Origin: Planctomycetota bacterium
GTDB lineage: Bacteria > Planctomycetota > Planctomycetia > Planctomycetales > Planctomycetaceae
Assembly (NCBI GenBank): GCA_027618475.1
Contig: JAQCEJ010000001.1
Location: 1 to 64,000 of the forward strand
DNA length: 64,000 bases
Reading direction: 5' to 3'
The notes under the pieces were generated by a model. It was not told the DNA's origin, searched no databases, and was given only the letters and a program-made list of their open reading frames with translations. How positions within the stretch are numbered: position 1 is the stretch's first letter; every line of letters starts with the position of its first letter. Of this stretch, positions 5,750 to 36,732 are shown in pieces. A program made the position numbers and the translations under genes.

Positions 5750-6018
5750 GGATATCTCGGCGATGTTGGTAGTCGTGGGATGACCGGGCAAGAGTGCCGG
5801 TCAACGGAGTTCCGGGATGAATTGCGCAGCACACGGTGCCGCTACAAACGACGAGCTACCGATTGTATCGCCGCAGAGAGAGAGCGTCGACCATGCGGAC
5901 AACGGAACAGAGCCGAGAGAGTGGGAAAGGGGGAGAGGGGGAGAGGGGGAGACGGTGAGATAAACGCGTGGGGACTCAAAAACGTTTAGCCGCCACGCAA
6001 CGCGGAGCGCGCTCTCAA

Positions 6019-8220: not shown

Positions 8221-8367
8221 AGTCCAACCCTGTTGCGAATGGTGTGTTACATCTCGAATCCGCAGATCGTCGTTCGATTCGCTTTGTACGCGAAGAGGAC
8301 AAGCGACAACGGCTTTCGGTGTCAGTCAATCGATTCCAAAGAATGGAAAATGACGATAAGTTCTGAT

Positions 8368-8410
8368 GTTGAAAATGTATGACACGTCGCCGACGTGTCA
8401 AATTTTCAAC
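8368..8410. repeat. 43-nt near-perfect palindrome between proC and the HD/GGDEF gene
   Basis: Two nested inverted arms are visible: GTTGAAAAT (8368-8376) with ATTTTCAAC (8402-8410), and TGACACGTC (8380-8388) with GACGTGTCA (8392-8400) around a 3-base loop. It could be a weak terminator of proC (no T-run follows on the minus strand), a binding site, or a dispersed hairpin repeat. The outer arm shares GTTGAAAAT with the palindromic element at 21310-21445. Confidence 0.6.
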
Positions 8411-8498
8411 CTCCGAGAACGGCGAATTTCGCAAATCATCGTGACTGGATGCGTTTGCAGGGAAGAGAAGGGGCGTCAGAAGAAGATGATCGTCGCGA

Positions 8499-9326
8499 TT
8501 ATGACGGTTTCCCGAGTTCCTGCGATCGCAGCGTCGCCGCTTTGACGGCCTCCATCACCGTGCCGCGCAGTCCGCCGGCCTCAAGGGCGTGCAGTCCGGC
8601 GATCGTCGTTCCCCCAGGACTGGTGACGGCGTCTTTCAATTGCCCGGGATGATCGCCCGTTTCGAGAACCATTTTCGCGGCCCCGAGCAGCGTCTGGGCG
8701 GCGAGTCGTGTGGCGATATCGCGAGGAAGTCCCATGTTCACTCCGCCGTCGCTAAGTGCTTCGATGAACTGATAGGCGTACGCCGGGCCGCTGCCGGATA
8801 ACCCCGTCACGGCGTCGAGTAAACTTTCCGGAACACGGACGGCGATACCGACCGCCGTCAGCAGTTGTTCGACCCATTTTCCGTCGGCTTCAGTTGCTCC
8901 GCCTCCCAGACAGAAAGCCGACGCCGACTCTCCGACGAGGCAGGGGGTGTTCGGCATCACACGGATGATGCGGCAGTGATTCCCCAGCACTTCGGTGAAT
9001 CGTCGAATCGGAACGCCGGCGGCGATCGAAACGAGTAAATGATCGGGTTTGACCTGATGGTGAATTTCTTTAAGAACCTCGGTCATGTTTTGCGGCTTGA
9101 CCGACAAAAACACGGTCTTTGCCTGATCCATCACCGCTGTATTGTCGGAAACAGTGCGGACGTTGCACGTTTTGGCAAAATGCTGCAAGAACTGGGGCGA
9201 GACATCGCTGCCGATAATCTGCTCGGGAGCACACACCTTCGAATGCAGAATTCCGCGGGCCAACGCCACGGCCATACGTCCCGTTCCGATAAATCCAATC
9301 GTCGGACGTGCCTCGTCTTCGCTCAT
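8499..9326 (-). CDS. proC: pyrroline-5-carboxylate reductase
   Basis: A 275-residue protein of normal family length. It reduces 1-pyrroline-5-carboxylate to L-proline with NAD(P)H, the last step of proline synthesis, in the cytoplasm. The N-terminal Rossmann motif IGFIGTGRMA (about 10-19) binds the cofactor, VKPQ and MPNTPC are family-typical, and the C-terminal signature runs through TGLSGSGPAY and SPGGTTIAGL. The ATG at 9326 has AGGAA eight bases upstream. It is divergent from the alpha/beta hydrolase that starts at 9490, so the 160 bases between probably hold both promoters. Confidence 0.96.
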   Translation of the reverse strand: MSEDEARPTIGFIGTGRMAVALARGILHSKVCAPEQIIGSDVSPQFLQHFAKTCNVRTVSDNTAVMDQAKTVFLSVKPQNMTEVLKEIHHQVKPDHLLVSIAAGVPIRRFTEVLGNHCRIIRVMPNTPCLVGESASAFCLGGGATEADGKWVEQLLTAVGIAVRVPESLLDAVTGLSGSGPAYAYQFIEALSDGGVNMGLPRDIATRLAAQTLLGAAKMVLETGDHPGQLKDAVTSPGGTTIAGLHALEAGGLRGTVMEAVKAATLRSQELGKPS

Positions 9327-9489
9327 CTTCGTATTCCTGTTAAGGACGTCTTTCTCGTGCTTTTTGTTTCGTGTCGGGAGAATGCCGTTCGTCGAAATGA
9401 TTCTCAGGAACGCTCTTGCGCTTGACTCCCGTCTCTCGACACTTGACGATGACCATCGTGATAAGATTTGTCAATCCCCGTATCGCGGT

Positions 9490-10434
9490 ATGTTGGTCGT
9501 TCCGGAATCTGAGGAGTTCGTTGTCCCGATGAATCTGCATTCTGACTCGGACCGTACTCTCGTCGTCGATCATGTCTGTTACGTGATCACCGAGGATGGC
9601 GTGCGCCTCGATGGGGTGTTGCAGCGCGCCCCGGCGAATGCGAACGCCGATTGCATTCCGGTTGACGTGTTTCTCCTCGTTCATGGAACGGGAAGCAACT
9701 ACTATGCAGCCGGGGTTCTCGAACGTTTCGCTGCCGATGCACTCGTCGGGGGAACCGACGTGCTGCGGGTTAATACCCGTGGCCACGACGGAATCTGTGC
9801 TCTTTCCGGACCGGGAAAACGACGCTTTGGTGGGGCGGCGTTCGAAGTCGTCTCCGATTGCCGACACGATCTCTCAGCCTGGCTCTCCGGGCTGGAATCG
9901 CGCGGATATCGCCATGTCTGTCTGGTCGGTCACAGCATGGGCGGGGTGAAGTCGATCTTTGCGCAGGCTCACGATCATCATCGACTCGTCGAAGCTGTTG
10001 TTGCCGTATCGTCTCCACGCTTTTGTCATCGCCTGTTGATGTCGTATCCTCAGACAAAGCGGTTTCGCGACGATTGGCAACGTGCCATCACACGTGTCGA
10101 ACAGGGAAACGGCGGGGAATTGATCCACGTCATGCAACCGCTTCCCCTCTGGATGACCGCCGAGGGATTCTTGGCGAAATACGGTCCCGACGACCCTTAC
10201 GATCTCGTGCGGTGGATTCCAGACGTTAACTGCCCGGTGCAATACATCGTCGGCTCGCAAACCGTGGCGACATCGCCTGCATTTTTCGAAATCGACAGCC
10301 AACTCGAACAGATCATTCCCAACAGTTACAATTTCACGGTTCAAGTCGTCGCCGACGCCGACATGAATTACAATGTCGCTCCGGAGAAACCGTATGAACT
10401 GACGGAGCGCTGGCTGCGCGAAGTGAATGTCTGA
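9490..10434 (+). CDS. alpha/beta hydrolase
   Basis: A 314-residue alpha/beta-hydrolase-fold protein. LLVHGTGSNYY (near residue 60) is the oxyanion-hole strand, and GHSMGG holds the nucleophile Ser149. The acid and histidine lie in the C-terminal part and cannot be pinned down by eye. There is no signal peptide, so it probably acts in the cytoplasm as an esterase or lipase; the substrate is unknown. The start is uncertain: ATG 9490 and ATG 9529 both precede the first conserved strand (TLVVDHVCYVITEDG), and longer in-frame extensions would run into the divergent proC promoter region. It is followed 77 bases later by apt on the same strand, but the two jobs are not obviously linked. Confidence 0.85.
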   Translation: MLVVPESEEFVVPMNLHSDSDRTLVVDHVCYVITEDGVRLDGVLQRAPANANADCIPVDVFLLVHGTGSNYYAAGVLERFAADALVGGTDVLRVNTRGHDGICALSGPGKRRFGGAAFEVVSDCRHDLSAWLSGLESRGYRHVCLVGHSMGGVKSIFAQAHDHHRLVEAVVAVSSPRFCHRLLMSYPQTKRFRDDWQRAITRVEQGNGGELIHVMQPLPLWMTAEGFLAKYGPDDPYDLVRWIPDVNCPVQYIVGSQTVATSPAFFEIDSQLEQIIPNSYNFTVQVVADADMNYNVAPEKPYELTERWLREVNV

Positions 10435-10511
10435 ACTTCGACCCGAGCCGCTTCTTATGTTGAACCCTTCATATTCGACGAACACTAATCCGTTCCAGGA
10501 GTCTGTCCTTC

Positions 10512-11045
10512 ATGGTTGAAATTTCCGATTTGAAGTCCTTCATCCGCACGATTCCCGATTTTCCCAAACCGGGAATTATGTTTCGCGACATCACACCATT
10601 GCTGGCGTCTCCCGAGGCATTCGGGAAGGTGATCGATACCCTGGCCGATCGATATCGCGGGCAACAGATCGACGCGGTACTTGCCGCCGAGGCGCGCGGC
10701 TTCATATTTGCGGCTCCCCTGGCGCTCGCGCTGCAAACGGCATTCATACCGATTCGTAAGCCGGGGAAACTGCCGTTTGATACTCAGGCGTTTCACTACG
10801 AGTTGGAATACGGCACCGATTCGCTTGAAATGCATATCGATGCCATCGAAGCGGGGGAGCGGGTACTGTTGGTCGACGATCTGCTGGCAACGGGGGGCAC
10901 GATGAAGGCTTGTGTGCACCTCGCCGAACAAGCGGGAGCAACGGTCGTCGGTTGCGCGCATGTCATCGAATTGACGTCGCTGAAAGGACGCGAAAAACTT
11001 GCTCCTTGCGACGTCTTTTCGCTGATCGAATACGATGGGGAATAA
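10512..11045 (+). CDS. apt: adenine phosphoribosyltransferase
   Basis: A 177-residue cytoplasmic enzyme that converts adenine and PRPP to AMP in purine salvage. The N-terminal [18 protein letters not shown] is characteristic of Apt, AAEARGF (about 59-64) is the adenine-side motif, and [13 protein letters not shown] (118-130) is the PRPP-binding motif. The length is normal for the family. The ATG has AGGAG ten bases upstream. It converges on the PilZ gene, with 19 bases between the stop codons. Confidence 0.96.
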
Positions 11046-11064
11046 CTCGCTGCCCCGTGATCAC

Positions 11065-11472
11065 TCACATCGTGGCGCGGCCTGTCAGACGGGCACCAAA
11101 TTCCCAGAACCCTTCGTGAACCTGTCGGGAGCGGATGATCTCGGCATTCAGCCAGATCGGTCCTTTGCCGGTCTCGAGGCAGAGAACAAAACTGGTGAGT
11201 TTGATGTTTCGCGTGTATAGAAACGAAACGCCGTTGTTGCTGATATTTCGAATTCGAACCAGAAAGGAGTTCGAATCGTCGGTTGGTCTGACGACCCCTT
11301 CTCCATTGGGAGGGTAAATCAAAGATGACGTGCGGAGATTCTTCCGAGGTGACGAGCGTTTTTGTATCTGATGCCCCTTGAGTCGATCGGCCCAGCGATC
11401 GAGACTCTCCAAAGCGCGCATCGCCCGACGAGATTCGGATTGTTCGACGTCTGACTGTGATGTCGTATTCAT
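11065..11472 (-). CDS. small PilZ-domain protein
   Basis: A 135-residue protein with one PilZ-like domain. RSSPRKNLR supplies the basic N-terminal motif, and RIRNISNNGVSFL corresponds to the second PilZ motif (D/N-x-S-x-x-G). PilZ domains bind cyclic-di-GMP, so this is a likely effector, possibly of the HD/GGDEF protein at 6019-8220 (inference). The first 40 residues look helical and charged. The ATG at 11472 follows GAGG. It is a single gene, convergent with apt. Confidence 0.8.
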   Translation of the reverse strand: MNTTSQSDVEQSESRRAMRALESLDRWADRLKGHQIQKRSSPRKNLRTSSLIYPPNGEGVVRPTDDSNSFLVRIRNISNNGVSFLYTRNIKLTSFVLCLETGKGPIWLNAEIIRSRQVHEGFWEFGARLTGRATM

Positions 11473-11731
11473 TGCCTCGATCCCGCAAGATCACGGATTG
11501 TCGGCCACCCGTATGTGGGGGAAAGCCCGGTCATTATCAAATACAACATACCTTTCGTTTTTTGAGGTCAACCGATTCTTGTTCCACGAGAAGAGGTTCT
11601 CGCTGCAAATCTTTCGATTCTTGCGGTGTTTCTCGCCTGATTCGGAAAATCCCCACATTCGCTGCCGATGGCGATCGTCTTACAATCGGCACGACGAGAC
11701 CGGGCGGAGACGGCCGGGTTATGGAAACTTT

Positions 11732-12868
11732 CTACTGGTTCTCGTCGAGAATCTCGCGCAACAGCGGTTCGAACGCATTGGCATGACGCCAGAAACCAAA
11801 GTCGGTGGGGTGCGAACCGTCGACGGTATCTTCACCATCCTTACCCAGAAGTTTGTCGCCGGTGAGGTAATAAATCCCCTGCACGCCGCCGTCGATCAGT
11901 TTTTCGAATTCCTGAAGCAATGCCGCGCGGTTGGTTTCGTTGCGGACGCGCGGCCCGTCGAGCACCTGCGAATTCGCATAACTGCGGTCTTCCACCAGCA
12001 GAATTGGTGTTTCGGGATGCGCTGCCTGCAACTGCTTGACCAGCGGTGCCGTGTTCGCCGACACCGCCGCGGCATCCATGTTCGGCAGACAATCGATGAC
12101 ATACACCGCCGCGTCGATCTCGGCGATGAATTGTGCGACTTCGGCCTCCATCCGTCCGTTGCCCGAAAATCCAAGATTAATCACCGGCCGCTTCAATCGA
12201 CGAGAAAGAATAGCGGTGTGCACCATCCCGGGCCGCGAAGCACAACCACCCTGCGTAATCGACGTACCGTAGAACACAATCGGTTTGGCATGATCGGCGG
12301 GATACTCGGGGCCTTTGAACAATTTGGCCCCTTCGGGCAATCCGATTTCGACCGAAGAGACTCCGTTGTACAACGGAAAATAAAGCATGAATTCGCGCGG
12401 AGCGGCGGTGCTCCCCGCCGTAAATTTGGCCGTGTTCGTGGTTTGTGTCGGTTGTCCCACACTGAGCCAGCGCCATTCGCCTTCGCCGTTTCGGACGTAT
12501 AAGTCGAGTCCGCTGACTCCCGTTGCCGGCATATGCGGCATCGCCAGTCGATCAGAAATCAAAGTCCAGCGTGCGGAGAACGACGGAGCGTCGGTGATAA
12601 AGCGGACGCATTCCCCTGCCGAGTGCCGACTCAATCCCCAGACGGCGTCGCGAACGACTCCTTCGGCCCGTGCGGGAAGGCGATCGTACGGTGCCTTCAA
12701 ATCGGCAAATGCTCTTCCTTCGACGTCGAGCAGGGCGGCATCGTACCATTGCACACCCTCTTCGCTCTTTGACTTAGAAGGCGAAATCGGTTCGTCGGCG
12801 TGGGCGAATGAAAATATCGTCGAGAAAAACAGGGCGTTCAGCAACACGGTTCGTAGAAGATTTTGCAT
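11732..12868 (-). CDS. secreted SGNH/GDSL-family hydrolase
   Basis: A 378-residue exported protein with a signal peptide ending near SFAHADEP. The first half is a beta-rich module (about 40-190). The SGNH hydrolase domain begins with IVFYGTSITQG (Ser near residue 203), continues with NLGFSGNG (block II Gly) and CLPNMDA (block III type Asn), and ends with DGSHPTDFG (catalytic Asp and His near 350). This two-part layout matches secreted esterases that deacylate polysaccharides; the substrate is not known. The ATG at 12868 is chosen because GGAGAG lies six bases upstream and the signal peptide starts there; longer forms lack this. It stands alone between the PilZ gene and a 422-base gap. Confidence 0.88.
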   Translation of the reverse strand: MQNLLRTVLLNALFFSTIFSFAHADEPISPSKSKSEEGVQWYDAALLDVEGRAFADLKAPYDRLPARAEGVVRDAVWGLSRHSAGECVRFITDAPSFSARWTLISDRLAMPHMPATGVSGLDLYVRNGEGEWRWLSVGQPTQTTNTAKFTAGSTAAPREFMLYFPLYNGVSSVEIGLPEGAKLFKGPEYPADHAKPIVFYGTSITQGGCASRPGMVHTAILSRRLKRPVINLGFSGNGRMEAEVAQFIAEIDAAVYVIDCLPNMDAAAVSANTAPLVKQLQAAHPETPILLVEDRSYANSQVLDGPRVRNETNRAALLQEFEKLIDGGVQGIYYLTGDKLLGKDGEDTVDGSHPTDFGFWRHANAFEPLLREILDENQ

Positions 12869-25578: not shown

Positions 25579-28341
25579 GTGTCAACTCAACGGATTCGCA
25601 GACGCAAGCACAGTGAGGGATCTACCGGACAGGGGGAACATGTGATATCGGATGGCGTTCCGCCCCTCGCTGCCGGTTTGTCGATCAAACTTGTCGATCT
25701 CGGCTTTATCGGATTGATCTGCGTGATGCCGTTCATCATGGGGGGCCGGCAGGCGCTCGGTGAACTCGCGCTCGTGGGGCTGGCAGGTTATCTCGGCGTG
25801 GCGTGGTGTCTCGCCCAGTTTCTACAGCCGCAACCCGATTTCATCCGCAGTTGGGCGTATTGGATATTGGCATTCGCCTTCGGACTTGTCGCGTTACAAC
25901 TGGTGACGCTGCCGCCGACGATCGTGCATCAGATATCGCCGCATCTTTCTAAAGCCTTGCCGCTGTGGTCGCCGGGAAGTGAATCGCCGATCCATCTCGG
26001 TCCCTGGTCGCAAATCAGCCTGACTCCTCACGAAACTTTGCAGGGGCTGATCGTCTTGGTCGCTTACAGCCTCATCTTTGTCGTGGCGATGCAGCGCATC
26101 CGTCGGCTCGAAGACGTGCAGATGTTCTTCCGCTGGATGGCCGTTGCGGCGGTCGCGATGGCGGGTTTTGGGCTCATTCAATTCGCGTTCGGAAACGGCA
26201 AGTTCTTCTGGTTTTATGAGAGTCCCTACACCGATGCGCTCGGTGCAGTGAAGGGAAGTTTCACCAATCGCAACCATCTGGCTCACTTTCTCGCACTCGG
26301 CATCGGGCCGCTGATCTGCTGGGGCGTTGGCATGTTTCAACGCTCCGGGTCGAATACGTCCTCGCGGGGAGGTTTCGCGTCGGGCTCTTCGGCGCAGCCG
26401 AATTACGGTGGTTTGCTGATCGTTCTATGTGGACTCGGACTGATCTTACTCGCGTGCGTTCTGTCGCTGTCGCGTGGCGGAATGATCGCCATGCTCGTTG
26501 CATTCGCATTGATGCTCGCCGTCATGATTCGTTCGAAACTTCTGGGGGGGCCGGCACTCATCGGTATGGGCGTGCTGGCGTTGGGGTTGTCGGTCGGCAT
26601 TGTGGTGTGCGGCGAAGAGATGGTGCAGAGCCGCGTCGATACCGTCGTCTCGGGCGATCTCGATGAATTAGACAAGAAAAACCGTCGGCAGGATATCTGG
26701 GAAGCGGTCGTTCTGGCGATCAAAGATTTTCCCGTTTTGGGAACCGGTATCGGCAGTCATCGCGACGTCTATCCTGCGTATATGGAAAAGGTGCACCCTG
26801 TCGAGTTCTCTCACGCCGAGAACGGTTACCTGCAAGTCACGATGGAAGGTGGAATTGCCGGTTTGATTTTGATGCTGTCGGGCTGGGCTGTCTGTTTGTG
26901 GGCGGCGTTCACCGGCTTGCAACGTTCGTCGTCGCAACACACAACGCTGGCTTTAGCGGCGGTGCTGGCGGGACTCTGTGTCAGTCTGGTGCATTCGCTG
27001 GCTGACTTTGTCTGGTATGTTCCCGCATGCATGGTGCCGGTCATACTGCTGGCGGCGTGTGGATTCCGATTGCAGAGTATGATACGACCTCAACTTCCAT
27101 CTGCGATGGCCCGCACCCCCTCGCTTGGCATTCCCAGGATTTTCTGGGGAGCCGCATGTCCCGGTGGAGCGTTGCTCGCCGTCTGGATGATTTTGCAGCA
27201 GCTCCCGTCGGTCGCGGCTGAACCGCACTGGCACGAGTATCTGAAATTGACGCTGAACGACGAAAGCGAAACCCCATCGAGCGAATTGGATGACGAAGCA
27301 TCGGCAGACGACGCAAACGACAATGAATTCGATTCGCTCAAGAAAAAATTGCACGCGCTGACGGCTGCGGTGAAGGCCGATCCGCAGAACTCGCGCATTC
27401 GCCTGCGGACGGCATTCGCTTACATGACCGTGTTTCAGATCATGCAGAACAATTCGGAAAACGCGATGTCGCTCTCGCAAATTGCCGACGCCGCCCGCAG
27501 TTCTCCCTTCGAATCACCGGAACAGATGCGGGAGTGGGTCAACAAAGTCGTCGGTAAGTCGCAGAAGTATCTCGACGGCGCGATGTTGCACGCCCGCGAA
27601 GCGTTAACGCTCTCCCCGATGCAGGGGCATGGTTACATGTATCTCTCCGAACTTTGTTTCCTTGACGGTGAAGATCAGGAAACGCAATCGGCCTATCTGA
27701 ATCAGGCTCTCGCCGTTCGCCCCTACGATCCGCAGATTCTGTTCGCCGTCGGACGCGACGCCCTGGCCCGCGGCGACCTCGAACTCGCCGCTCGAAACTG
27801 GAAAGGGTCGTTTCATCGGAGCGCGGTGTATAAGCAGAGAATCATCGATCTGCTGGCCGATTTTGTTCCGGCATCGTTCTTTACAGAGAATTTCGAACCC
27901 GACGCGCAATCGCTGCAATTGCTGATCAAGCGATATGAAAACTCGACGCGACAGGAAGATCTGCATGTGCTGTTGCGTGCCTTTGCCGAGGCAGCTCACA
28001 CCGAATCACAAGTCACCGAAGGGGATAAGGCCGTTCAACTTTTGATTTTGGCGCACCGGGCCTACGATCAGTTGCAAGAGACCGAGGAGGCCTGGCAATC
28101 GTTGAACGATGCCTTGTCGATCGACGAGAATTCGTACGAAGTGCATTACGCCGCCGGTCTCTGGTTGTATCGGCAAGAGAGATTCTCCGAAGCCGTCAAA
28201 CATCTCGACTGGTGCAACGAGCACAGACCCGGCAACAACAAACTTCGGTTGTTGTGCGAGAGAGCAAGAACGCGGTCTTCAGGCCGCACGGCGGTCCGCA
28301 GCGTGAGTCATTCGTCGGATGACGACGACAAACTATTCTGA
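25579..28341 (+). CDS. O-antigen ligase/polymerase-family protein with TPR region
   Basis: A 920-residue membrane protein. The N-terminal half (about 30-500) has ten or more hydrophobic segments and the Wzy/WaaL-type periplasmic region (KGSFTNRNHLAHFLAL, VLGTGIGSHRDVYPAYM, HAENGYLQVTMEGG). This is the family that polymerises or ligates polysaccharide repeats. After a last membrane helix near 530, residues about 570-900 are TPR-like helical repeats with an acidic linker. The GTG at 25579 has GGGAGG eight bases upstream. It is the last gene of the exopolysaccharide operon. Its final codons (SSDDDDKLF) and stop are part of a 38-bp sequence that occurs again at 33341-33378. Confidence 0.88.
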   Translation: MSTQRIRRRKHSEGSTGQGEHVISDGVPPLAAGLSIKLVDLGFIGLICVMPFIMGGRQALGELALVGLAGYLGVAWCLAQFLQPQPDFIRSWAYWILAFAFGLVALQLVTLPPTIVHQISPHLSKALPLWSPGSESPIHLGPWSQISLTPHETLQGLIVLVAYSLIFVVAMQRIRRLEDVQMFFRWMAVAAVAMAGFGLIQFAFGNGKFFWFYESPYTDALGAVKGSFTNRNHLAHFLALGIGPLICWGVGMFQRSGSNTSSRGGFASGSSAQPNYGGLLIVLCGLGLILLACVLSLSRGGMIAMLVAFALMLAVMIRSKLLGGPALIGMGVLALGLSVGIVVCGEEMVQSRVDTVVSGDLDELDKKNRRQDIWEAVVLAIKDFPVLGTGIGSHRDVYPAYMEKVHPVEFSHAENGYLQVTMEGGIAGLILMLSGWAVCLWAAFTGLQRSSSQHTTLALAAVLAGLCVSLVHSLADFVWYVPACMVPVILLAACGFRLQSMIRPQLPSAMARTPSLGIPRIFWGAACPGGALLAVWMILQQLPSVAAEPHWHEYLKLTLNDESETPSSELDDEASADDANDNEFDSLKKKLHALTAAVKADPQNSRIRLRTAFAYMTVFQIMQNNSENAMSLSQIADAARSSPFESPEQMREWVNKVVGKSQKYLDGAMLHAREALTLSPMQGHGYMYLSELCFLDGEDQETQSAYLNQALAVRPYDPQILFAVGRDALARGDLELAARNWKGSFHRSAVYKQRIIDLLADFVPASFFTENFEPDAQSLQLLIKRYENSTRQEDLHVLLRAFAEAAHTESQVTEGDKAVQLLILAHRAYDQLQETEEAWQSLNDALSIDENSYEVHYAAGLWLYRQERFSEAVKHLDWCNEHRPGNNKLRLLCERARTRSSGRTAVRSVSHSSDDDDKLF

Positions 28342-28353
28342 ACGATCGCTCTC
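28316..28353 (+). repeat. 38-bp direct repeat, left copy
   Basis: A perfect 38-bp match to 33341-33378 in the same orientation. It begins CGGATGACGACG and ends CGATCGCTCTC. This copy contains the last eight codons and the stop of the polymerase gene. The repeat-to-repeat distance is 5,025 bp. Confidence 0.93.
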
Positions 28354-28453
28354 ACACTCCATCCGTGCAAGTTCAAAATGGTGTTTCCCCGTCCGAACTC
28401 CTGTCTATCGCAATACTTGCATGTCGAATCATCTATTGAACCGCTCGGCGATC

Positions 28454-31400
28454 TCACAACTTCACCTTTCTTAGCTCGTCATGAAGCTTCTTTCTTCGCT
28501 TCTTTAACTTATCGATGGCGCGTTTCGCCTCGAATTCAGAAACCGCCTGCAACGCTTGTTGAAGAAAAGGGTGAAGGGGGCGATGAGCATCGCCAGGATC
28601 AACGAATCCAACGAGTGCATCGAAATAGACGAGTTGCTCATTAGGATCCTTCTCCTCGATGATCAGGCGTGTCAAATCGATCACGCGGCGGCGATCCCGC
28701 CGCTGTTGTTTCGCCACTATGGCGGCACGAACCACATCATCTGAAGAATCGTCAAGTATGTTCGTCAAAGCATCATCAATGGCATCTTCGAGCATGGCCC
28801 AGCCGGCTAACTCGGCACCTGCGGTTCGAACGATTTCAATTTCGTCGCGCATTAAATGGAACACCGTGGAGTCGGGTATGCGGTTTTCCAGCGCGCGGCC
28901 GACGGCGACTCGAACCAGTTGTGACTTTTCCCTGGGATATTGCATAACAAGCCATTGAATTGCGCGAATTTCATCGATCTTCATCAGAATCGACGGATAC
29001 AATTCACGGTCATGGGCTTCATCATCTTCCAATGCACGGCACGCGGCTGCGAATGCTGCTTCGGGGTCAAATTCTGCTAGACATTGGATGGCGTTAGCCT
29101 TAGATCCCACGCACCAAGAGGGACCCTCAGCGTCAGCACACGCGTGATGAAACAACTCGCGAACCCGCGAATCTTGAAACACCTTTGTTCGGACTTCCGC
29201 TGGTCGTATCTCTGTCAGAAAGAGCTTGAGGAAGGAATATCCGTCAATCCACCGGTGATTTGGAATGTGAGATAACGCAATTTCAGCGACCACGTCGTGG
29301 TACTCGGTCAGATTGATGAGGTTGATCGCGGTTACAAAATCGAAGTGGACCTGCAGATCTTCGTACAATGCGGCCCATGCGTCCGGTGTTCCCGCGTTTT
29401 GGAGCATTTGAATCGCGGAAAAACGCTGCTTGCCGACCTTTAGGTGGTCGGAAACTCTTGCGACTCCCTCCTTCGAACAATCATTTAATGATTCAAGGGA
29501 GATAATACAGGCGTGGGCCAATTCCGAGTTTGGATCGCACTGGTCGAGGATTGCGTGAAGGCGAGAGCAATCTTCCTCGCTCCCTACTACTCCGAGTGCT
29601 ATTACGCTTCCGACGGTCGGCGTTTGTTCGACCGTCTGTCTGAGCGATTCGGTCCAGACGTCTGTTATCGGTCTTGGAGCCCTCTTTAGATCGGGAGACG
29701 TTTTCATTCCCCACTTCTTAATTCCTTCAGCTACGAATTCCCATCGTCCAAGTTGCGCTAGAATCTTCATTGCCTCATCTTGAACGACGGGAACATCACC
29801 ACCACCCGGCCAGCACTCATCAGAAAGGGTGATTTGCCGCAATCGTTCGATCGTGAGTGCATCGGAACGTCTCGATGACCATTCGAGAGCGGCGTGCTTT
29901 CCGTACTGGTCACCCCTAATGAGGAATTCGTTCGTGACGGCTGTCAGCCCGTCACCGCCAATAAGATTCAGAATCGCAATTGCAGGATCGCGTTCGATTC
30001 CGGTTGCCCATTGGCCAAGTTGAGGTCCGATTCTTAGCACGTAGTCGCGGAGAACACGTTCGAACGAGGTACCTCGTCGGGCACGAAGCACTTGCAAATG
30101 CTCCGGTGCAGCCAGTTTCGCGATAAACGCCAGCTCACGATGAAGGACGTTGCAAGAGTCCGCATCCCCACGGAGTTTTGCGTCAAGCACTCGGCCCAAT
30201 GCATCGATCGCAATTTCCAGCATCGCGGTGGAGATGTCGTTTTCCCGGTTTTGAAAAGCGAGCGCGATTTTCCAAGGATCGTCAGACCTTTGCATCCATT
30301 CAAGCAGGGCCGCGTGTGTTTCCAATCGACGTCGTTCGAAAATCTCGGTGAATGCTGAATTCCTCCACAGGTTAACTTCCATTGGATCCGTACGCGACAA
30401 TCCAGCGACCGCTGCATCAGGCGCGAGACGAGAGAGTGCTTGCAATGCCGGCGCTGAGACAAGATCAATCTTGCTTCCAATCCACTGGTGTAACCAGCCC
30501 GTTTCCGAAGTGTCGCGATATCTGGCGATGTTGGCGACTAAGCTGCGCGGCTTTTCGGCCCGCGTCTTTTCGAACAGCATCGCTTTGACTAAATACCACG
30601 TCCGTCCTCCGTCGTTCGCGTTCGCAACCAAGTAACCCAGATCGTGCACCGGTTCCGTCGCCGGTTCAGCACACTTGATCGCATTTACCAGCCATTGCGG
30701 CGCTTCACGAACCGATTGTCGCAGAGCATCAAATGTTTCCCTGTAGAGAAGCAAAGCGTTCTTTACTTGCTCGCCAAATAGGGTGGGATCGCGTTGGGCA
30801 GTAACATGAATGGTCCAAAGGTGGTCGAGCAATGTGGGGCACGGTGCTAAACGAAGAAGATTCACGCCGCGTCGCTGCTCTTCGTAATCATCGGATTCGA
30901 TCAGAGGTCGTGCGAACGTTTCTATTCGATCCCTGCCAACAACAGAAAGACACCTCATTATCCGCTTCAGAATCCAAGGTTGACCCACGAACGAACAAAG
31001 GCGGCCGTAGACGGCATCTGCTATACAGGCTCCGAGCGTCGGCACAAGTTTGTCGTATAAGAGTTCCGCATACCGTGTGTTGGCATTTTCAAGCGATTCA
31101 AGGATTCGGATGCAGAGATCGACGTGTTGCTCGTTGCCGCGACTGAGTCCCCACAGCACATCCATTGGAACATAATCGAGGAAGGCGTCTTGATCGCCAG
31201 ACTGGATGCGTACCTGCTTCGCCACGAATTCGACCACGGCTTCAGCCGTGATGCGTCCGGTACGAAAATCACCGCATAAGGTCTGAGCAACGGCCCATTG
31301 CAGCAGGCGGTCATGGAAAATGCGATAGCTGTCGCCGACTGCGATAAGCCAGCCGACACCCATTAGGCGAGCCAAGGCTTGATTATCGATACCGGCGTCA

Positions 31401-33052
31401 ACAAGTTGACGGGGCGACCATGGATATGGCGCCCCCTCCCTAGCGCCACGTGCTAAGTTTTCAACGTAGCCTAAGTCAAGGGGCCAGTCGCTTTGCGGAC
31501 CATTTGTTAATCTGTTCCAGACGCTCTGATAAAGTTCGTATTCGGTCGACGCATTCCAGCCCATCTCACCGAGTTGCTCGCAATAGATTCTCGCCAGAAG
31601 TGGCTTACGCAGTGGTTCTCGTACGTCAATTGGGATTTCCGCCCAGCCGGTTTCGAGACGGCGGTCCACATAATCGTGAAGTTCCTCCCATGAGAAATCC
31701 CGGCATTCGTAGACGTGAAATCGATTCGGATAGGCCGCCTGCAAATTTTTGGCGTACTTCGGAGGCAAGGCAACAACGAGGCTGGATGACAATGCTCGCC
31801 AGTCTTGCTCGATTAATCGACGCGCCTCTTCGTACGTTACCACCCCGTCAACGAACACTGCTAAGCCGACGTCAGAGTTGGTGAGCTTTTTTAGCCTCTT
31901 TATGATGCGTGAGAGGGGCAGTACCTCGTCGCCATCGTGTATCTCATTCCAAAACACTTCAGCACATTTCTTCAACGTCGCCTCGGCAGTTCCTTCCGAT
32001 TCGACGAGAATTGGTAGTAGCGGTCCGGTTGCACGCTTGGCGAGAGCGTTGACGGTCCACGTCTTACCGGCTCCACTTTCACCAGTTAGAACAAGGATTT
32101 CTCCGGTATGGGGAGCAACCGGCAGTTCTGCCAGACGGACGTCGACATTTTCGTCGTATCCGATTCGTTCAGTTGCTCGACTTACCAGGCACCGTGCGGA
32201 ACCGATGTGGTTCGTCCAGTCCGTCAATGGCGTCGCATCCAACCCGTGATCCGAAAGAAATTTGTTTGCATCAATCACTGCTCCGCCGATCGTTGAGGCT
32301 TTCGCGAGTTCCATTGCAAGATGATCACGGATACGTGGGATGTCATCGTGTTTGTCAACAATCGCGAGCAACAAGGCATCGATCGACTGTTGGACGGATT
32401 GAAGATCCTGTCCACCGACAAACTCAAAGCCGCCGACCAACTCTCTCACCCGCAGGTATAATTCCCGGTTGTTGAGGTTGAGTTTCTTCACTGCCGAACG
32501 CTCGGATATCACGTCTGCGATTTTTAAGAATAGCGAGCGTTCTGTGATAGGCAGGGGAAAGAAAGTCTCGGTAGTGTCTGACTTGAGTCGGAGCCTGATC
32601 GGGACGTTATCGTCCAAATGGTCAAGTGGATCGTCCAATGTGCCGCGACTTCGAAGTGTTCGGAAAAACGTCTCATAAACTTGTCGCCACGATCCCATTC
32701 TTCCTTCAGTGACGAAGCGAAATGTGGAGACATTAGAAACTGTGGCATCTACCGCGAGGAATAGATCAGGAAAAACATCCTCGATGATTTCTCTCAGCGA
32801 CCACGTGCCACCGTCAGATCGAGCCTTGATTTGTTCGACAATCCTTCCCGAAGCTTGGTGCAATTGAAGATCGCCGCCACCGTCGCGCGGCTCTAAAACG
32901 ATCGTGAAGGCCTCCGGTTGTGAAGAACTTATCGGAGCGGAATTCATAATGCGCAGCGTTGCAACGTGAAGCAGACTGCGGAGTAGCTGGTACACCACTC
33001 CATTGATTGTGCTACCTCCTCCGCTTGCTACCTTCCCTGTCATATTTCCCAT
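28454..33052 (-). CDS. Avs-like STAND NTPase with N-terminal nuclease-like domain
   Basis: A 1,532-residue cytoplasmic protein. The N-terminus (MGNMTGKVASGGGSTINGVVYQ) leads into a putative Cap4/PD-(D/E)xK-type nuclease: RDGGGDLQL then IVEQIKAR (about 50-77), where the acidic residues and the QxK pair would form the active site. A P-loop NTPase follows, with Walker A VLTGESGAGKTW (near 326) and Walker B-like AVFVDG (near 399), and a helical lid/winged-helix region to about 600. The remaining 900 residues are helical HEAT-like repeats without other motifs. Nuclease-NTPase-repeat proteins of this kind in the STAND/AVAST group sense phage proteins and then cut DNA (family knowledge); antiviral function here is inferred. 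The ATG at 33052 has AGGA upstream. It is the only large gene between the 38-bp repeats. Confidence 0.75.
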   Translation of the reverse strand: MGNMTGKVASGGGSTINGVVYQLLRSLLHVATLRIMNSAPISSSQPEAFTIVLEPRDGGGDLQLHQASGRIVEQIKARSDGGTWSLREIIEDVFPDLFLAVDATVSNVSTFRFVTEGRMGSWRQVYETFFRTLRSRGTLDDPLDHLDDNVPIRLRLKSDTTETFFPLPITERSLFLKIADVISERSAVKKLNLNNRELYLRVRELVGGFEFVGGQDLQSVQQSIDALLLAIVDKHDDIPRIRDHLAMELAKASTIGGAVIDANKFLSDHGLDATPLTDWTNHIGSARCLVSRATERIGYDENVDVRLAELPVAPHTGEILVLTGESGAGKTWTVNALAKRATGPLLPILVESEGTAEATLKKCAEVFWNEIHDGDEVLPLSRIIKRLKKLTNSDVGLAVFVDGVVTYEEARRLIEQDWRALSSSLVVALPPKYAKNLQAAYPNRFHVYECRDFSWEELHDYVDRRLETGWAEIPIDVREPLRKPLLARIYCEQLGEMGWNASTEYELYQSVWNRLTNGPQSDWPLDLGYVENLARGAREGAPYPWSPRQLVDAGIDNQALARLMGVGWLIAVGDSYRIFHDRLLQWAVAQTLCGDFRTGRITAEAVVEFVAKQVRIQSGDQDAFLDYVPMDVLWGLSRGNEQHVDLCIRILESLENANTRYAELLYDKLVPTLGACIADAVYGRLCSFVGQPWILKRIMRCLSVVGRDRIETFARPLIESDDYEEQRRGVNLLRLAPCPTLLDHLWTIHVTAQRDPTLFGEQVKNALLLYRETFDALRQSVREAPQWLVNAIKCAEPATEPVHDLGYLVANANDGGRTWYLVKAMLFEKTRAEKPRSLVANIARYRDTSETGWLHQWIGSKIDLVSAPALQALSRLAPDAAVAGLSRTDPMEVNLWRNSAFTEIFERRRLETHAALLEWMQRSDDPWKIALAFQNRENDISTAMLEIAIDALGRVLDAKLRGDADSCNVLHRELAFIAKLAAPEHLQVLRARRGTSFERVLRDYVLRIGPQLGQWATGIERDPAIAILNLIGGDGLTAVTNEFLIRGDQYGKHAALEWSSRRSDALTIERLRQITLSDECWPGGGDVPVVQDEAMKILAQLGRWEFVAEGIKKWGMKTSPDLKRAPRPITDVWTESLRQTVEQTPTVGSVIALGVVGSEEDCSRLHAILDQCDPNSELAHACIISLESLNDCSKEGVARVSDHLKVGKQRFSAIQMLQNAGTPDAWAALYEDLQVHFDFVTAINLINLTEYHDVVAEIALSHIPNHRWIDGYSFLKLFLTEIRPAEVRTKVFQDSRVRELFHHACADAEGPSWCVGSKANAIQCLAEFDPEAAFAAACRALEDDEAHDRELYPSILMKIDEIRAIQWLVMQYPREKSQLVRVAVGRALENRIPDSTVFHLMRDEIEIVRTAGAELAGWAMLEDAIDDALTNILDDSSDDVVRAAIVAKQQRRDRRRVIDLTRLIIEEKDPNEQLVYFDALVGFVDPGDAHRPLHPFLQQALQAVSEFEAKRAIDKLKKRRKKLHDELRKVKL

Positions 33053-33075
33053 CACTTCCTGCAAGGATACCCCCG

Positions 33076-33339
33076 GGGTGCCCCAGACAATTTTCTATGC
33101 CTATTCTTGGTTTTGGGTGGCCCAGACGCCCCGTCGTCTGGGTCGCGAAGCGATAAGAAGCTGCTATCAATCGCTCAATGATACCAAAACGCCCTCGTCG
33201 ATTCATTCAATCCACTCGCTGACTGTTCGTCATTTCTTCATGATGCGATGGCACGTTGGAACGTCAATGATTCATTGTTGCAACAGGACATGCTTCTTGT
33301 GCCAAAGGCACCCAGACGCAGGGGTGTCTGGGCCACCCC
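33076..33339. repeat. inverted pair of CCCAGAC hairpin repeats
   Basis: GGGTGGCCCAGAC at 33115-33127 is the exact reverse complement of 33326-33338. Each unit is itself a hairpin (33121-33128 with 33135-33142; 33311-33317 with 33326-33332). A diverged third copy, GGGTGCCCCAGAC, lies at 33076-33088. The pair frames 224 bases upstream of the nuclease-NTPase gene and ends directly at the right 38-bp repeat. No open frame with a start signal is supported between them. Confidence 0.75.
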
Positions 33340-33340
33340 G

Positions 33341-33378
33341 CGGATGACGACGACAAACTATTCTGAACGATCGCTCTC
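33341..33378 (+). repeat. 38-bp direct repeat, right copy
   Basis: Identical to 28316-28353. Here it does not belong to a long gene; the sequence to its left is the CCCAGAC hairpin repeat and to its right the upstream region of the fatty-acid modification genes. Confidence 0.93.
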
Positions 33379-33440
33379 GCACCGCGATGATTTATCCCCT
33401 CGGAAGTGAATCGGTAAGACATTTCGGTACACTTCGGAGG

Positions 33441-33743
33441 ATGATTCAATCGTGGTTTGTGATTATCGTCGCCGTCGCCATGGGTTCATCCGCTGTTGTA
33501 GCCGGCTACTGTGAGGCTGCGGTGCAACCCGCATATGAAACTGTCCGGGACATTCGAACGATCATCACCCAGGAACGAATGCACTCGATCGCCACGACAT
33601 TTGATTCGTCGCCGGAAATGATTAAAATGGTACGTGATCGTTTGACACCAAACGTCCATCGTGTTGGAACGCAATTTTCCACTTCCACGGGAGAGTCCTA
33701 TGGCAGTGACGATTGGCAAGCCGATCGAGCAATTCGAATCTGA
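33441..33743 (+). CDS. possible small secreted protein
   Basis: A 100-residue open frame whose first 27 residues (MIQSWFVIIVAVAMG, SSAVVAGYCEAA) look like a signal peptide, followed by a short helical, charged region. I do not recognise it. GGAGG directly abuts the ATG, leaving no normal spacing; an upstream ATG at 33387 would add 18 residues. The 3' end overlaps the methyltransferase gene by 44 bases in another frame. It may be a real small gene in front of the lipid operon or chance coding. Confidence 0.35.
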   Translation: MIQSWFVIIVAVAMGSSAVVAGYCEAAVQPAYETVRDIRTIITQERMHSIATTFDSSPEMIKMVRDRLTPNVHRVGTQFSTSTGESYGSDDWQADRAIRI

Positions 33744-35076
33744 AGATCGACCATATGTCGATGAGGTGTTTTCCCCTCAACCGCTGCCGGACCATGGCTG
33801 CGGGGGTTCCCCGTCAGATCGTCATCCTACCGGCTGGATTGCGCGACACCTCGCACACCACATGGTGCGGATGGGACGGCCTCTCGTCACGCTGAAGTCG
33901 TGGAAGGGAGAAATTCTGTACGACGCCGGTCCGCAGAGTGTCGGTACCATTCACTTTCTCGAACGTCCTCCGAGCTGGTCGTTGTGGCGGAATCCTCAAC
34001 TTTGTTTCGCCGAGGGGTATGTTGACGGTAAGGTTGTCGTCGAGGGGGAGTTGAAATCGATTTTGCTTGCGCTGTTTCGAGCGCAGGTTTCTACATCGGC
34101 GAAGAGATCGTGCGGCTGGTTGTCGGAGTGGTGGCCTCACCGCAAGAATACGCTCACACGCGCGCGTAACAACGTACACCATCATTACGACATCGGCAAC
34201 GATTTTTATCGGTTGTGGCTCGATCGACAGTTGCTGTATACCTGCGCGTTTTTCCACGATCCTTCTGCATCGCTGGAGGAAGCCCAAATCGCCAAAATGA
34301 ATCGCGTCTGCCGAAAGTTGTGGTTGAAACCGGGAGAACACGTCGTCGAAGCGGGTTGCGGCTGGGGATCTCTCGCCTTGCATATGGCGCGCGAATTCGG
34401 TGTGAAAGTCACCGCCTACAACATTTCGCGAGAACAGATTGTGTATGCCCGTGAACGGGCTCGTCTGGAACAACTCGATCATCTGGTGACGTATGTCGAA
34501 GACGACTGGCGCAACATCTCGGGAACGTACGATGCCTTTGTTTCCGTCGGTATGCTCGAACATGTCGGTACTGAAAATTATGTGGAACTGGGGGATGCCA
34601 TTCGGAAATGCCTTCCGGTCCATGGACGTGGGCTCATCCATTCGATCGGTCGCAATCGACCGAGGCATCTCGACGCCTGGACCGAAAAGTACATTTTTCC
34701 GGGGGCGTATCCCCCGGCGCTCAGCGAAATGACCGACATCTTCGAGCAGTCCTTCTTCTCGATTCTCGACGTCGAAAACCTGCGTCGACATTATACGTTG
34801 ACGCTCGATCATTGGCTTGATCGCTTCGAACGGCATGTCGAAAACATCCGCGAGATGTTTGACGAGCGGTTTGTGCGCATGTGGCGGATGTATCTCGCCG
34901 CATCGTCGGCGACATTCGAGGCGGGTGAATTACAACTCTTCCAGGTCGTGTTCGCTCCCGGAAAGAACAATCACATTCCGTGGAGTCGCGACGGATTGTT
35001 GTCTGTCGACGGCGAACAATGCCGTTCTGCGTCGGTGCCGCTGTTCATTCCTTCTCCAATTCCTTTTGGAGAATAA
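33700..35076 (+). CDS. cyclopropane-fatty-acyl-phospholipid synthase-family methyltransferase
   Basis: A 458-residue S-adenosylmethionine-dependent enzyme acting on unsaturated acyl chains of membrane lipids. The N-terminal domain (about 40-140) is the lipid-binding part seen in this family. The methyltransferase core starts with NVHHHYDIGNDFYRLWLD, then LLYTCAFFHD, and the SAM motif VVEAGCGWGSLALHMA (near 225). YVEDDWRN and SVGMLEHVG are family-typical. The C-terminal LDHWLDRFERHVENI is also conserved. ATG 33700, with GGGAGAG five to six bases upstream, is clearly the start. The stop lies two bases before the FAD-enzyme start, so the two are coupled; this suggests the methylated lipid is processed further. 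Confidence 0.92.
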   Translation: MAVTIGKPIEQFESEDRPYVDEVFSPQPLPDHGCGGSPSDRHPTGWIARHLAHHMVRMGRPLVTLKSWKGEILYDAGPQSVGTIHFLERPPSWSLWRNPQLCFAEGYVDGKVVVEGELKSILLALFRAQVSTSAKRSCGWLSEWWPHRKNTLTRARNNVHHHYDIGNDFYRLWLDRQLLYTCAFFHDPSASLEEAQIAKMNRVCRKLWLKPGEHVVEAGCGWGSLALHMAREFGVKVTAYNISREQIVYARERARLEQLDHLVTYVEDDWRNISGTYDAFVSVGMLEHVGTENYVELGDAIRKCLPVHGRGLIHSIGRNRPRHLDAWTEKYIFPGAYPPALSEMTDIFEQSFFSILDVENLRRHYTLTLDHWLDRFERHVENIREMFDERFVRMWRMYLAASSATFEAGELQLFQVVFAPGKNNHIPWSRDGLLSVDGEQCRSASVPLFIPSPIPFGE

Positions 35077-35078
35077 CT

Positions 35079-36236
35079 GTGCAGAGCTACGATACCGTGA
35101 TTGTCGGCGGCGGGCCCGCCGGTTCGACATGTGCCGATCACCTGCGCGCGGCGGGGCTCGACGTGCTGCTGATCGATCAGCGCGAATTTCCCCGCGACAA
35201 AACCTGTGCAGGTTGGATCACTCCTCCGATCGTTGAGACGTTGAATCTGAATATCGAGGAGTATTCGCAGCACGCCGTTTGCCAGCCGATCACCGCGTTT
35301 CGGACGGGGATGATCGGCGGTAAAGCCGTTGAGACCGATTACGGCCGCATCGTGAGTTACGGCATTCGCCGCTGCGAGTTCGATGATTATCTGCTCAAGC
35401 GGTCGGGGGTGCCGACGCAACTCGGCCACGCCGTGAAGTCGCTCGAATACCGCGACGCACAGTGGGAGATCAATGGCGAGATTCGTACGCCGCTGCTGAT
35501 CGGGGCCGGCGGACATTTTTGTCCGGTGGCCCGTCAACTCGGGGCGAAGAGCGAAGAATCGGCGACGGTTGTTGCCGCTCAGGAGATCGAATTCGAGATG
35601 TCGGACGATGATATCGGTCGCTGCAATGTCCAACCGCATCAACCCGAACTTTATTTCTGCAGCGATCTCGCCGGTTACGGCTGGTGCTTTCGCAAGCGGA
35701 ATTTTCTGAACATCGGCCTCGGTCGCACGAATGGTGAAAAGGTCTCGCACCACGTCGATGCGTTCGCTGACTTTCTCAAACAGACGGGACGATATACGGG
35801 ACGATTTCCCGGAAAATTTCACGGCCATGCCTATCGTCTCTACGAGCGTGAATTTCCGCAGTTGTTCGGCGATGGCGTATTGCTGATCGGCGACGCCGCA
35901 GGGTTGGCGTATCCACAAAGCGGCGAGGGGATTCGTCCCGCCGTCGAATCAGCGGTCCTCGCGGCGGAAACAATCATTGCGGCGAACAAAAGCTACGGAC
36001 GTGACCAACTCGCACCGTACCGCGATCGTCTGGTCGCCCGACTGGGAACCCCGCGAAACACCGATGGCAACCACTGGCTGCCGCAAAGCTGGCTCTGCAC
36101 CCTAGCGGGCACGTTACTTGGTACGAAGTGGTTTACGAAACACGTCGTTCTCGATCGCTGGTTTCTCCATGCCAACACGGCAGCTTTGAAGAGCAACCAC
36201 GAACGTCACGAAAAGCACGAACGGAAAGTCATCTGA
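35079..36236 (+). CDS. FAD-dependent oxidoreductase, geranylgeranyl-reductase-like
   Basis: A 385-residue flavoprotein. The N-terminal Rossmann motif TVIVGGGPAGSTCADHL binds FAD; DKTCAGW follows the family pattern, and GDGVLLIGDAAGLAYPQSGEGIRPAVES is the second FAD motif. The family reduces isoprenoid or fatty double bonds or hydroxylates aromatic rings. Tight coupling to the cyclopropane-synthase homologue suggests a lipid substrate (inference). The GTG at 35079 has GGAG eight bases upstream. The last 14 residues (NHERHEKHERKVI and preceding Ser) are encoded by the left arm of the palindromic cassette at 36195, so the original C-terminus was replaced by repeat sequence. Confidence 0.88.
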   Translation: MQSYDTVIVGGGPAGSTCADHLRAAGLDVLLIDQREFPRDKTCAGWITPPIVETLNLNIEEYSQHAVCQPITAFRTGMIGGKAVETDYGRIVSYGIRRCEFDDYLLKRSGVPTQLGHAVKSLEYRDAQWEINGEIRTPLLIGAGGHFCPVARQLGAKSEESATVVAAQEIEFEMSDDDIGRCNVQPHQPELYFCSDLAGYGWCFRKRNFLNIGLGRTNGEKVSHHVDAFADFLKQTGRYTGRFPGKFHGHAYRLYEREFPQLFGDGVLLIGDAAGLAYPQSGEGIRPAVESAVLAAETIIAANKSYGRDQLAPYRDRLVARLGTPRNTDGNHWLPQSWLCTLAGTLLGTKWFTKHVVLDRWFLHANTAALKSNHERHEKHERKVI

Positions 36237-36329
36237 AATAAATCACACCACAATATTGACCATAATCACAGAATCTTCAAATATCATATCGAGAGCATCT
36301 CGTTCGTGCTTTTCGTGACGTTCGTGGTT
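36195..36329. repeat. 29-bp perfect inverted repeat, left border of the GxxExxY cassette
   Basis: Arms at 36195-36223 (beginning AACCACGAACGTCACG) and 36301-36329 (beginning CGTTCGTGCTTTTCG) are exact reverse complements, with 77 bases between. The left arm lies inside the oxidoreductase coding sequence. Similar shorter sequence occurs at 36731-36780. Confidence 0.92.
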
Positions 36330-36363: not shown

Positions 36364-36732
36364 ATTCTGTTCAAGGAGGAATGCTACGCGATCAATGGAG
36401 CGATTTTCGACGTTTACCGTGAAATGGGATGCGGGTTCCTTGAACACGTTTATCAAGAATGTCTTGCCAAAGAGTTCGGCCTGCGGAATATCGCTTACCG
36501 TGAAAAGCCCGAGTTGCGTTTAACGTACAAGCAGATGCAACTGGAGCGAACTTACGAGCCCGATTTCATCTGCTTCGACACGATCATCGTCGAACTGAAA
36601 GCCGTCAAAGAGATCGCACCTGAGCACCAAGCGCAAATCCTGAATTACCTCAAAGCAACAGGACTCAAACTGGGACTCCTGGTCAATTTTGGAGCCTATC
36701 CCAAGGCCGTCATTCAACGATTTGCTTTATGA
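36364..36732 (+). CDS. GxxExxY family protein (PD-(D/E)xK nuclease superfamily)
   Basis: About 120 residues. The signature GCGFLEHVYQECL gives the GxxExxY motif. ERTYEPDFICFDTIIVELKAV has the Asp and the ExK of the PD-(D/E)xK fold, and LNYLKATGLKLGLLVNFG is the family C-terminal block. Function is unknown. The reading frame has no ATG, GTG or TTG upstream of the ATG at 36424, yet conserved residues (FKEECYAINGAIFDVYREM) are encoded before it. An in-frame stop at 36358-36360 limits the start to the ATT at 36364 or CTG at 36367; otherwise translation starts at 36424 and the protein is truncated. GGAGGA at 36375-36380 points to an out-of-frame ATG. It may therefore be a decaying copy. Confidence 0.75.
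   Translation: MLFKEECYAINGAIFDVYREMGCGFLEHVYQECLAKEFGLRNIAYREKPELRLTYKQMQLERTYEPDFICFDTIIVELKAVKEIAPEHQAQILNYLKATGLKLGLLVNFGAYPKAVIQRFAL

What the first reader, a model, noticed from the sequence alone, without database searches (positions are those of the whole stretch)
28316..33378. 5-kb insertion bounded by a perfect 38-bp direct repeat and carrying one Avs-like gene
The sequence shows the last codons, stop and following bases of the exopolysaccharide polymerase gene (28316-28353) repeated exactly at 33341-33378. Between them lies only the 1,532-residue nuclease-NTPase-repeat gene plus hairpin repeats, and no integrase or transposase. The simplest reading is integration at the 3' end of a gene with duplication of the target (attL/attR-like), by an element whose recombinase acted in trans or was lost. 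The 38-bp length is too long for ordinary IS target duplications. An alternative is unequal recombination after a tandem duplication.
Basis: partly seen in the sequence, partly recalled or inferred. Interest (0 to 1): 0.75.

Follow-up and report, generated by a model that had tools for sequence, protein, structure and literature searches.

The report
Foreign defence-like gene beside duplicated gene end
A planctomycete has picked up a large, probably anti-phage gene between two ordinary gene blocks; the 38-base repeat around it is real, but it looks more like a copying accident at a hairpin repeat (REPIN) than proof that an integrase inserted the gene.

Summary
The repeat is real: 28316-28353 = 33341-33378 exactly (41/42 over 28316-28357/33341-33382), and it occurs nowhere else in the 5.93-Mb genome. 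The enclosed 1,532-residue gene is foreign: aberrant codon usage, no homologue in 39 relatives, and full-length homologues in only 2 of 391 other genomes of the phylum searched plus two alphaproteobacterial plasmids. Some homologues lie beside BREX, Mrr or SMC-like defence genes. Its architecture (Cap4/LmuA-like nuclease motif, P-loop NTPase, HEAT repeats) resembles Avs, but no library model files it there. Two facts weaken the attL/attR reading. (1) The right copy is fused, with a 2-bp overlap, to the terminus of a 272-bp REP doublet (REPIN) of a family with dozens of copies in this genome. (2) The left copy is not at a sequence junction: a 107-bp spacer unit (28341-28447), 78% identical to another place in the genome, runs through the supposed left boundary (P = 7e-4 by chance). 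I favour acquisition of the gene plus a separate event that copied 40-42 bp of the Wzy end next to the REPIN (template switching, or a trimmed tandem duplication). att-like integration by a lost or trans-acting recombinase remains possible; no empty site is available to decide.

The parts
25579..28341 (+). Wzy_C / O-antigen-ligase-like polymerase gene with C-terminal TPR; its last 8 codons and stop form the first 26 nt of the repeat
   Evidence: homologues match query residues up to about 898-912 of 920
28316..28357 (+). left copy of the direct repeat (38 nt perfect, 41/42 over 42 nt)
28341..28447 (.). 107-bp spacer unit filling the gap between the Wzy stop and the stop of the nuclease-STAND gene; 78% identical to G000:C162:7998-8104; crosses the supposed left junction 28357/28358
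28454..33052 (-). 1,532-aa Cap4/LmuA-like nuclease motif + P-loop (STAND-type) NTPase + HEAT-repeat gene, ATG at 33052 with an AGGA Shine-Dalgarno-like motif; foreign codon usage
33071..33342 (.). REPIN-like element: inverted REP units 33115-33161 / 33292-33338 plus an extra REP-like arm at 33071-33115; strong single-strand hairpin (z = -4.9)
33341..33382 (+). right copy of the repeat, abutting and overlapping by CG the REP terminus; carries 26 nt of Wzy end plus 16 nt of the spacer unit
33444..33743 (+). small ORF with signal-peptide-like start, first gene after the right copy (no Pfam family)
33661..36236 (+). CMAS (33661-35076) and GGR-like FAD protein (34980-36236; name from my reading of the sequence); block conserved in relatives but not adjacent to Wzy there

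Best explanation
Two separate things lie here. First, a single-gene, horizontally acquired, probably anti-phage gene (nuclease-STAND-HEAT) was established between the Wzy gene and the CMAS operon. It would work like an Avs/NLR-type sensor: C-terminal repeats bind a phage product, the NTPase oligomerises, and the N-terminal PD-(D/E)xK-like nuclease cuts DNA. Second, 40-42 bp from the Wzy end and the first bases of its spacer were copied to the outer end of the REPIN upstream of that gene. Proposed mechanism: replication or repair synthesis stalled at the REPIN hairpin and switched template about 5 kb back using the CG shared by the REP terminus and position 28316, then rejoined downstream. Equivalently, [Wzy end - gene - REPIN] was duplicated in tandem at that microhomology and most of the second copy was later deleted. 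Shown: repeat, REPIN junction, spacer unit crossing the left boundary, foreign gene. Inferred: the order of events, the template switch, and the defence function.
For: Right copy starts at the REP terminus: other REP ends in the genome read CCACCCCG followed in several cases by CG, so the junction has a 2-bp overlap. REPIN family is resident: 51 matches in the genome at E up to 10, two nearly full-length copies at 90% and 84%, with a Y1 (RAYT-type) transposase beside related REPs on C44. REPIN folds strongly as a single strand (z = -4.9). Left boundary is crossed by the 107-bp unit shared with C162; leftward extension of score 7 over 17 nt has P = 7e-4 by chance. No recombinase in the segment. 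The two near-full-length REPIN copies elsewhere show no long flanking repeats, so the duplication is not a normal by-product of REPIN insertion. Foreign gene: GC3 0.54 vs 0.61-0.72 in 16 window genes, and the largest codon-usage distance (0.336) although it is among the longest genes; 0 of 39 relatives and 2 of 391 other phylum genomes have a homologue of comparable length.
Against: The template-switch or duplication-plus-deletion history leaves no independent trace; the downstream 33383+ sequence is unique and cannot show a deletion scar. A 38-42 bp duplicated gene end is also what a site-specific integrase would leave. The left-crossing argument rests on 12/17 matching bases with one paralogous locus.
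Confidence: 0.5

Rival explanations
1. attL/attR-like: the 5-kb segment (28358-33340 plus one core) is a recombinase-less integrated element (CIME-like) that entered the 3' end of Wzy by site-specific recombination, the integrase having been lost or acting in trans.
For: 38-42 bp near-perfect duplication of a gene's 3' end that keeps the gene intact; foreign gene between; 13 tyrosine-recombinase matches elsewhere in the genome could act in trans; the C162 homologue of the left end lies beside a transposase and a tRNA-like fragment, so it could be a relic of a related element end; CIMEs are a recognised class (PMC5704250).
Against: No integrase or relic in 5 kb; no inverted arms of core type in the repeat; target lies in a Wzy tail outside the part matched in homologues; exact abutment of a resident REPIN would be coincidence; no other copy of the core in the genome.
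Confidence: 0.27
2. Insertion of foreign DNA into a staggered break: 5' overhangs of about 40 nt filled in, giving a long target duplication around captured DNA.
For: One-step origin of a long duplication around arbitrary DNA without a recombinase; consistent with the anatomy.
Against: No Ku protein found in the genome, so classical bacterial end-joining is unlikely; it does not explain why the 107-bp unit crosses the left boundary.
Confidence: 0.1
3. Assembly artefact: the second copy or the whole segment order was produced by misassembly.
For: 218-contig draft assembly; reads not available.
Against: Contig is 181 kb, the repeat is shorter than typical assembly k-mers (general knowledge), and the copies differ at one base within the 42-nt repeat.
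Confidence: 0.05

Closest known systems
REPIN / REP-RAYT systems (PMC3116915)
   Same: Inverted REP doublet with strong hairpin, many copies in the genome, Y1 transposases in the genome, one of them flanked by related REPs on C44.
   Different: Here the terminus of one REPIN coincides with one end of a 40-42 bp duplication copied from 5 kb away; the two other near-full-length REPINs show no such repeat.
CIME (cis-mobilizable element, PMC5704250)
   Same: Direct repeats at the 3' end of a gene around cargo without recombinase.
   Different: No related element with an integrase at the same site; REPIN at one junction; no circle or empty site shown.
Avs / AVAST STAND proteins (PMC12931631)
   Same: Tripartite order: nuclease-like N-terminus, P-loop NTPase in the middle, C-terminal repeats.
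   Different: No Avs model hits this protein; one homologue matches Avs2 only around the P-loop; C-terminal repeats are HEAT; trigger unknown.
Cap4 / DUF4297 / LmuA nuclease domains (PMC11291478)
   Same: N-terminal residues 10-265 align weakly with LmuA (E 0.005; best family member 3.4e-5) and have a conserved YQ...EP-GGD...VEQ-K pattern.
   Different: Not matched by Pfam or by PDB sequence search; nuclease fold not demonstrated.

Membership tests
CIME / integrated element with att sites | flanking direct repeats (attL/attR) | tested here: met
   38 nt exact, 41/42
CIME / integrated element with att sites | single att site in an empty relative | not testable with these tools
   no second genome of the genus among those searched; flanks not syntenic in relatives
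CIME / integrated element with att sites | core site with inverted recombinase arms | tested here: not met
   best dyad no better than shuffled sequence
CIME / integrated element with att sites | boundary coincides with a sequence discontinuity on both sides | tested here: not met
   left boundary crossed by 107-bp unit (P 7e-4)
REPIN | two inverted REP sequences with hairpin potential, multicopy | tested here: met
REPIN | REP-associated Y1 transposase in the genome | tested here: met
   14 Y1_Tnp matches; C44:660-1028 lies between related REPs
Avs (AVAST) | similarity to an Avs1-5 family model | tested here: not met
   no Avs hit for the window protein; a homologue hits Avs2 only around the P-loop, E 0.0014
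Avs (AVAST) | N-effector / STAND NTPase / C-repeat architecture | tested here: inconclusive
   P-loop and HEAT found; N-terminal nuclease weak; nSTAND hits sub-threshold
Avs (AVAST) | activation by a phage protein and anti-phage activity | not testable with these tools
   needs experiment

The most novel reading that the evidence does not exclude
The REPIN terminus is the working end of a mobile unit: a RAYT-type HUH transposase moved a REPIN together with the adjacent defence gene, leaving a duplicated gene end, i.e. REP/RAYT-driven mobilisation of a defence cassette.
Probability: 0.06. Interest if true: 0.75.

Novelty: new member of a known kind. Interest (0 to 1): 0.38.

Why it matters
It shows that a long perfect direct repeat around a foreign gene is not by itself proof of site-specific integration: the end of a REPIN and a recurring spacer unit can point to a copying event instead. 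It also records a rare nuclease-STAND-HEAT family, found in few planctomycete genomes and near defence genes elsewhere, that the defence-system library used here does not name.

Tried and rejected
Empty site in relatives: not available, because no second genome of the genus was among those held, and Wzy and CMAS are on separate contigs or far apart in relatives. REPIN insertion alone as cause of the duplication: rejected because the two near-full-length copies on C172 and C153 have no long flanking repeats. Ku-based end-joining: no Ku. Other copies of the repeat: none. The 107-bp unit as structured RNA or coding: no fold signal, no codon periodicity, no Rfam hit on the C162 locus, and on the window only one weak sub-threshold snoRNA match inside the large gene; weak hits in two other genomes are short and lack the rest of the unit. 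Viral-contig and phage searches for the gene: no relative. Single-sequence AlphaFold of the N-terminus failed (pLDDT 37.5), so no fold search was made. tRNA target: no tRNA in the window.

Full report
Observation. The 38-nt identity at 28316-28353 / 33341-33378 is exact and extends to 41/42. With up to three mismatches neither a 35-mer nor a 22-mer of it occurs anywhere else in the 5.93-Mb genome. Surveying 786 kb of this genome, other long repeat pairs look like dispersed REP-type repeats, tandem or segmental duplications or repeated gene segments; this is the only pair of 22 nt or more in the window (the classification is my reading). Between the copies are one large gene on the minus strand and a hairpin element.

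The gene. Its codon usage is the most deviant of 17 window genes tested although it is among the longest (distance 0.336, GC3 0.54 against 0.61-0.72). It has no homologue in 39 relatives; 2 of 391 other genomes of the phylum carry one of comparable length at about 29-30% identity, and two alphaproteobacterial plasmids carry one. One homologue follows PglZ-like, BrxL and KAP-NTPase genes, i.e. a BREX-type neighbourhood; one lies near IS fragments and a tyrosine-recombinase fragment; one is followed by an SMC-like ATPase that hits many defence models; one is near an Mrr-type nuclease. Conserved features are a YQ...EP.GGD...VEQ.K pattern, a P-loop (GESGAGKT) and HEAT repeats. The N-terminus aligns weakly with LmuA. 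This is Avs-like in plan, but not an Avs family member by the models available. Horizontal acquisition is well supported; the defence role is inferred.

The right junction. The element 33071-33342 is a REPIN-like REP doublet: family matches at 51 places in the genome (max E 10), two close copies of nearly full length, strong hairpin, and a Y1 transposase beside related REPs on C44. Its outer end reads CCACCCCG, and several REPs elsewhere continue with CG. The right repeat copy starts at exactly this CG. The REPIN also begins 19 nt upstream of the gene's ATG, so the gene's original promoter region is probably missing or replaced (inference).

The left junction. The spacer between the Wzy stop and the large gene's stop, 28341-28447, is 78% identical to C162:7998-8104. 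The similarity starts at the last base of the Wzy stop and continues through 28357/28358, where an insertion model needs a junction. The extension into the repeat (12 of 17) has P = 7e-4 by chance. The base that differs between the two repeat copies is G in the right copy and in C162, so the left copy probably carries the changed base. Thus the left copy looks like continuous resident sequence, and the right copy looks like a truncated copy of it.

Interpretation. Template switching at the REPIN hairpin, or a tandem duplication joined at REP-CG|GATGACG and later trimmed, explains both junctions and the absence of a recombinase. Illegitimate, microhomology-joined tandem duplications are well known in bacteria (PMC11111574). 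An att-like integration explains the size and position of the repeat, but needs the REPIN abutment to be coincidence and C162 to be a relic of a related element end. I give the first about 0.5 and the second about 0.27. Neither can be decided without another strain of the species, because Wzy-CMAS adjacency is not conserved in the family and reads are not available.

Noticed in passing
36195-36329, 36424-36732: GxxExxY-type PD-(D/E)xK gene (PDDEXK_3) with a 29-bp inverted repeat just upstream (36195-36223 vs 36301-36329) that also recurs on C61: another small inserted-looking unit downstream.
   Followed up: partly
L147 (G000:C162) 7600-9500: 107-bp relative of the left spacer beside an rve-type transposase and a truncated tRNA-like 5' half (GCACCCCTAGCTCAATTGGATAGAGC...), apparently a decayed mobile-element site.
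   Followed up: partly
L054 (G067:C310) 1167-11778: Homologue of the large gene next to PglZ-like, BrxL and KAP-NTPase genes: candidate BREX-associated gene.
   Followed up: partly
L061 15104-19250 (Rhizobium indigoferae megaplasmid): Homologue followed by an SMC/LmuB-like ATPase, a HATPase protein and a response-regulator/TCAD9/APH fusion: possible multi-gene defence operon.
   Followed up: no
L086 (G000:C44) 492-2783: Y1 (RAYT-like) transposase flanked by REPs of a sister subfamily, a candidate driver of REPIN spread in this genome.
   Followed up: partly
L076 (G000:C7) 657-2121; L102 (G000:C58) 1925-2750: Pairs of long repeats at constant spacing (about 1350 and 742 nt): apparent tandem duplications elsewhere in this genome.
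   Followed up: no
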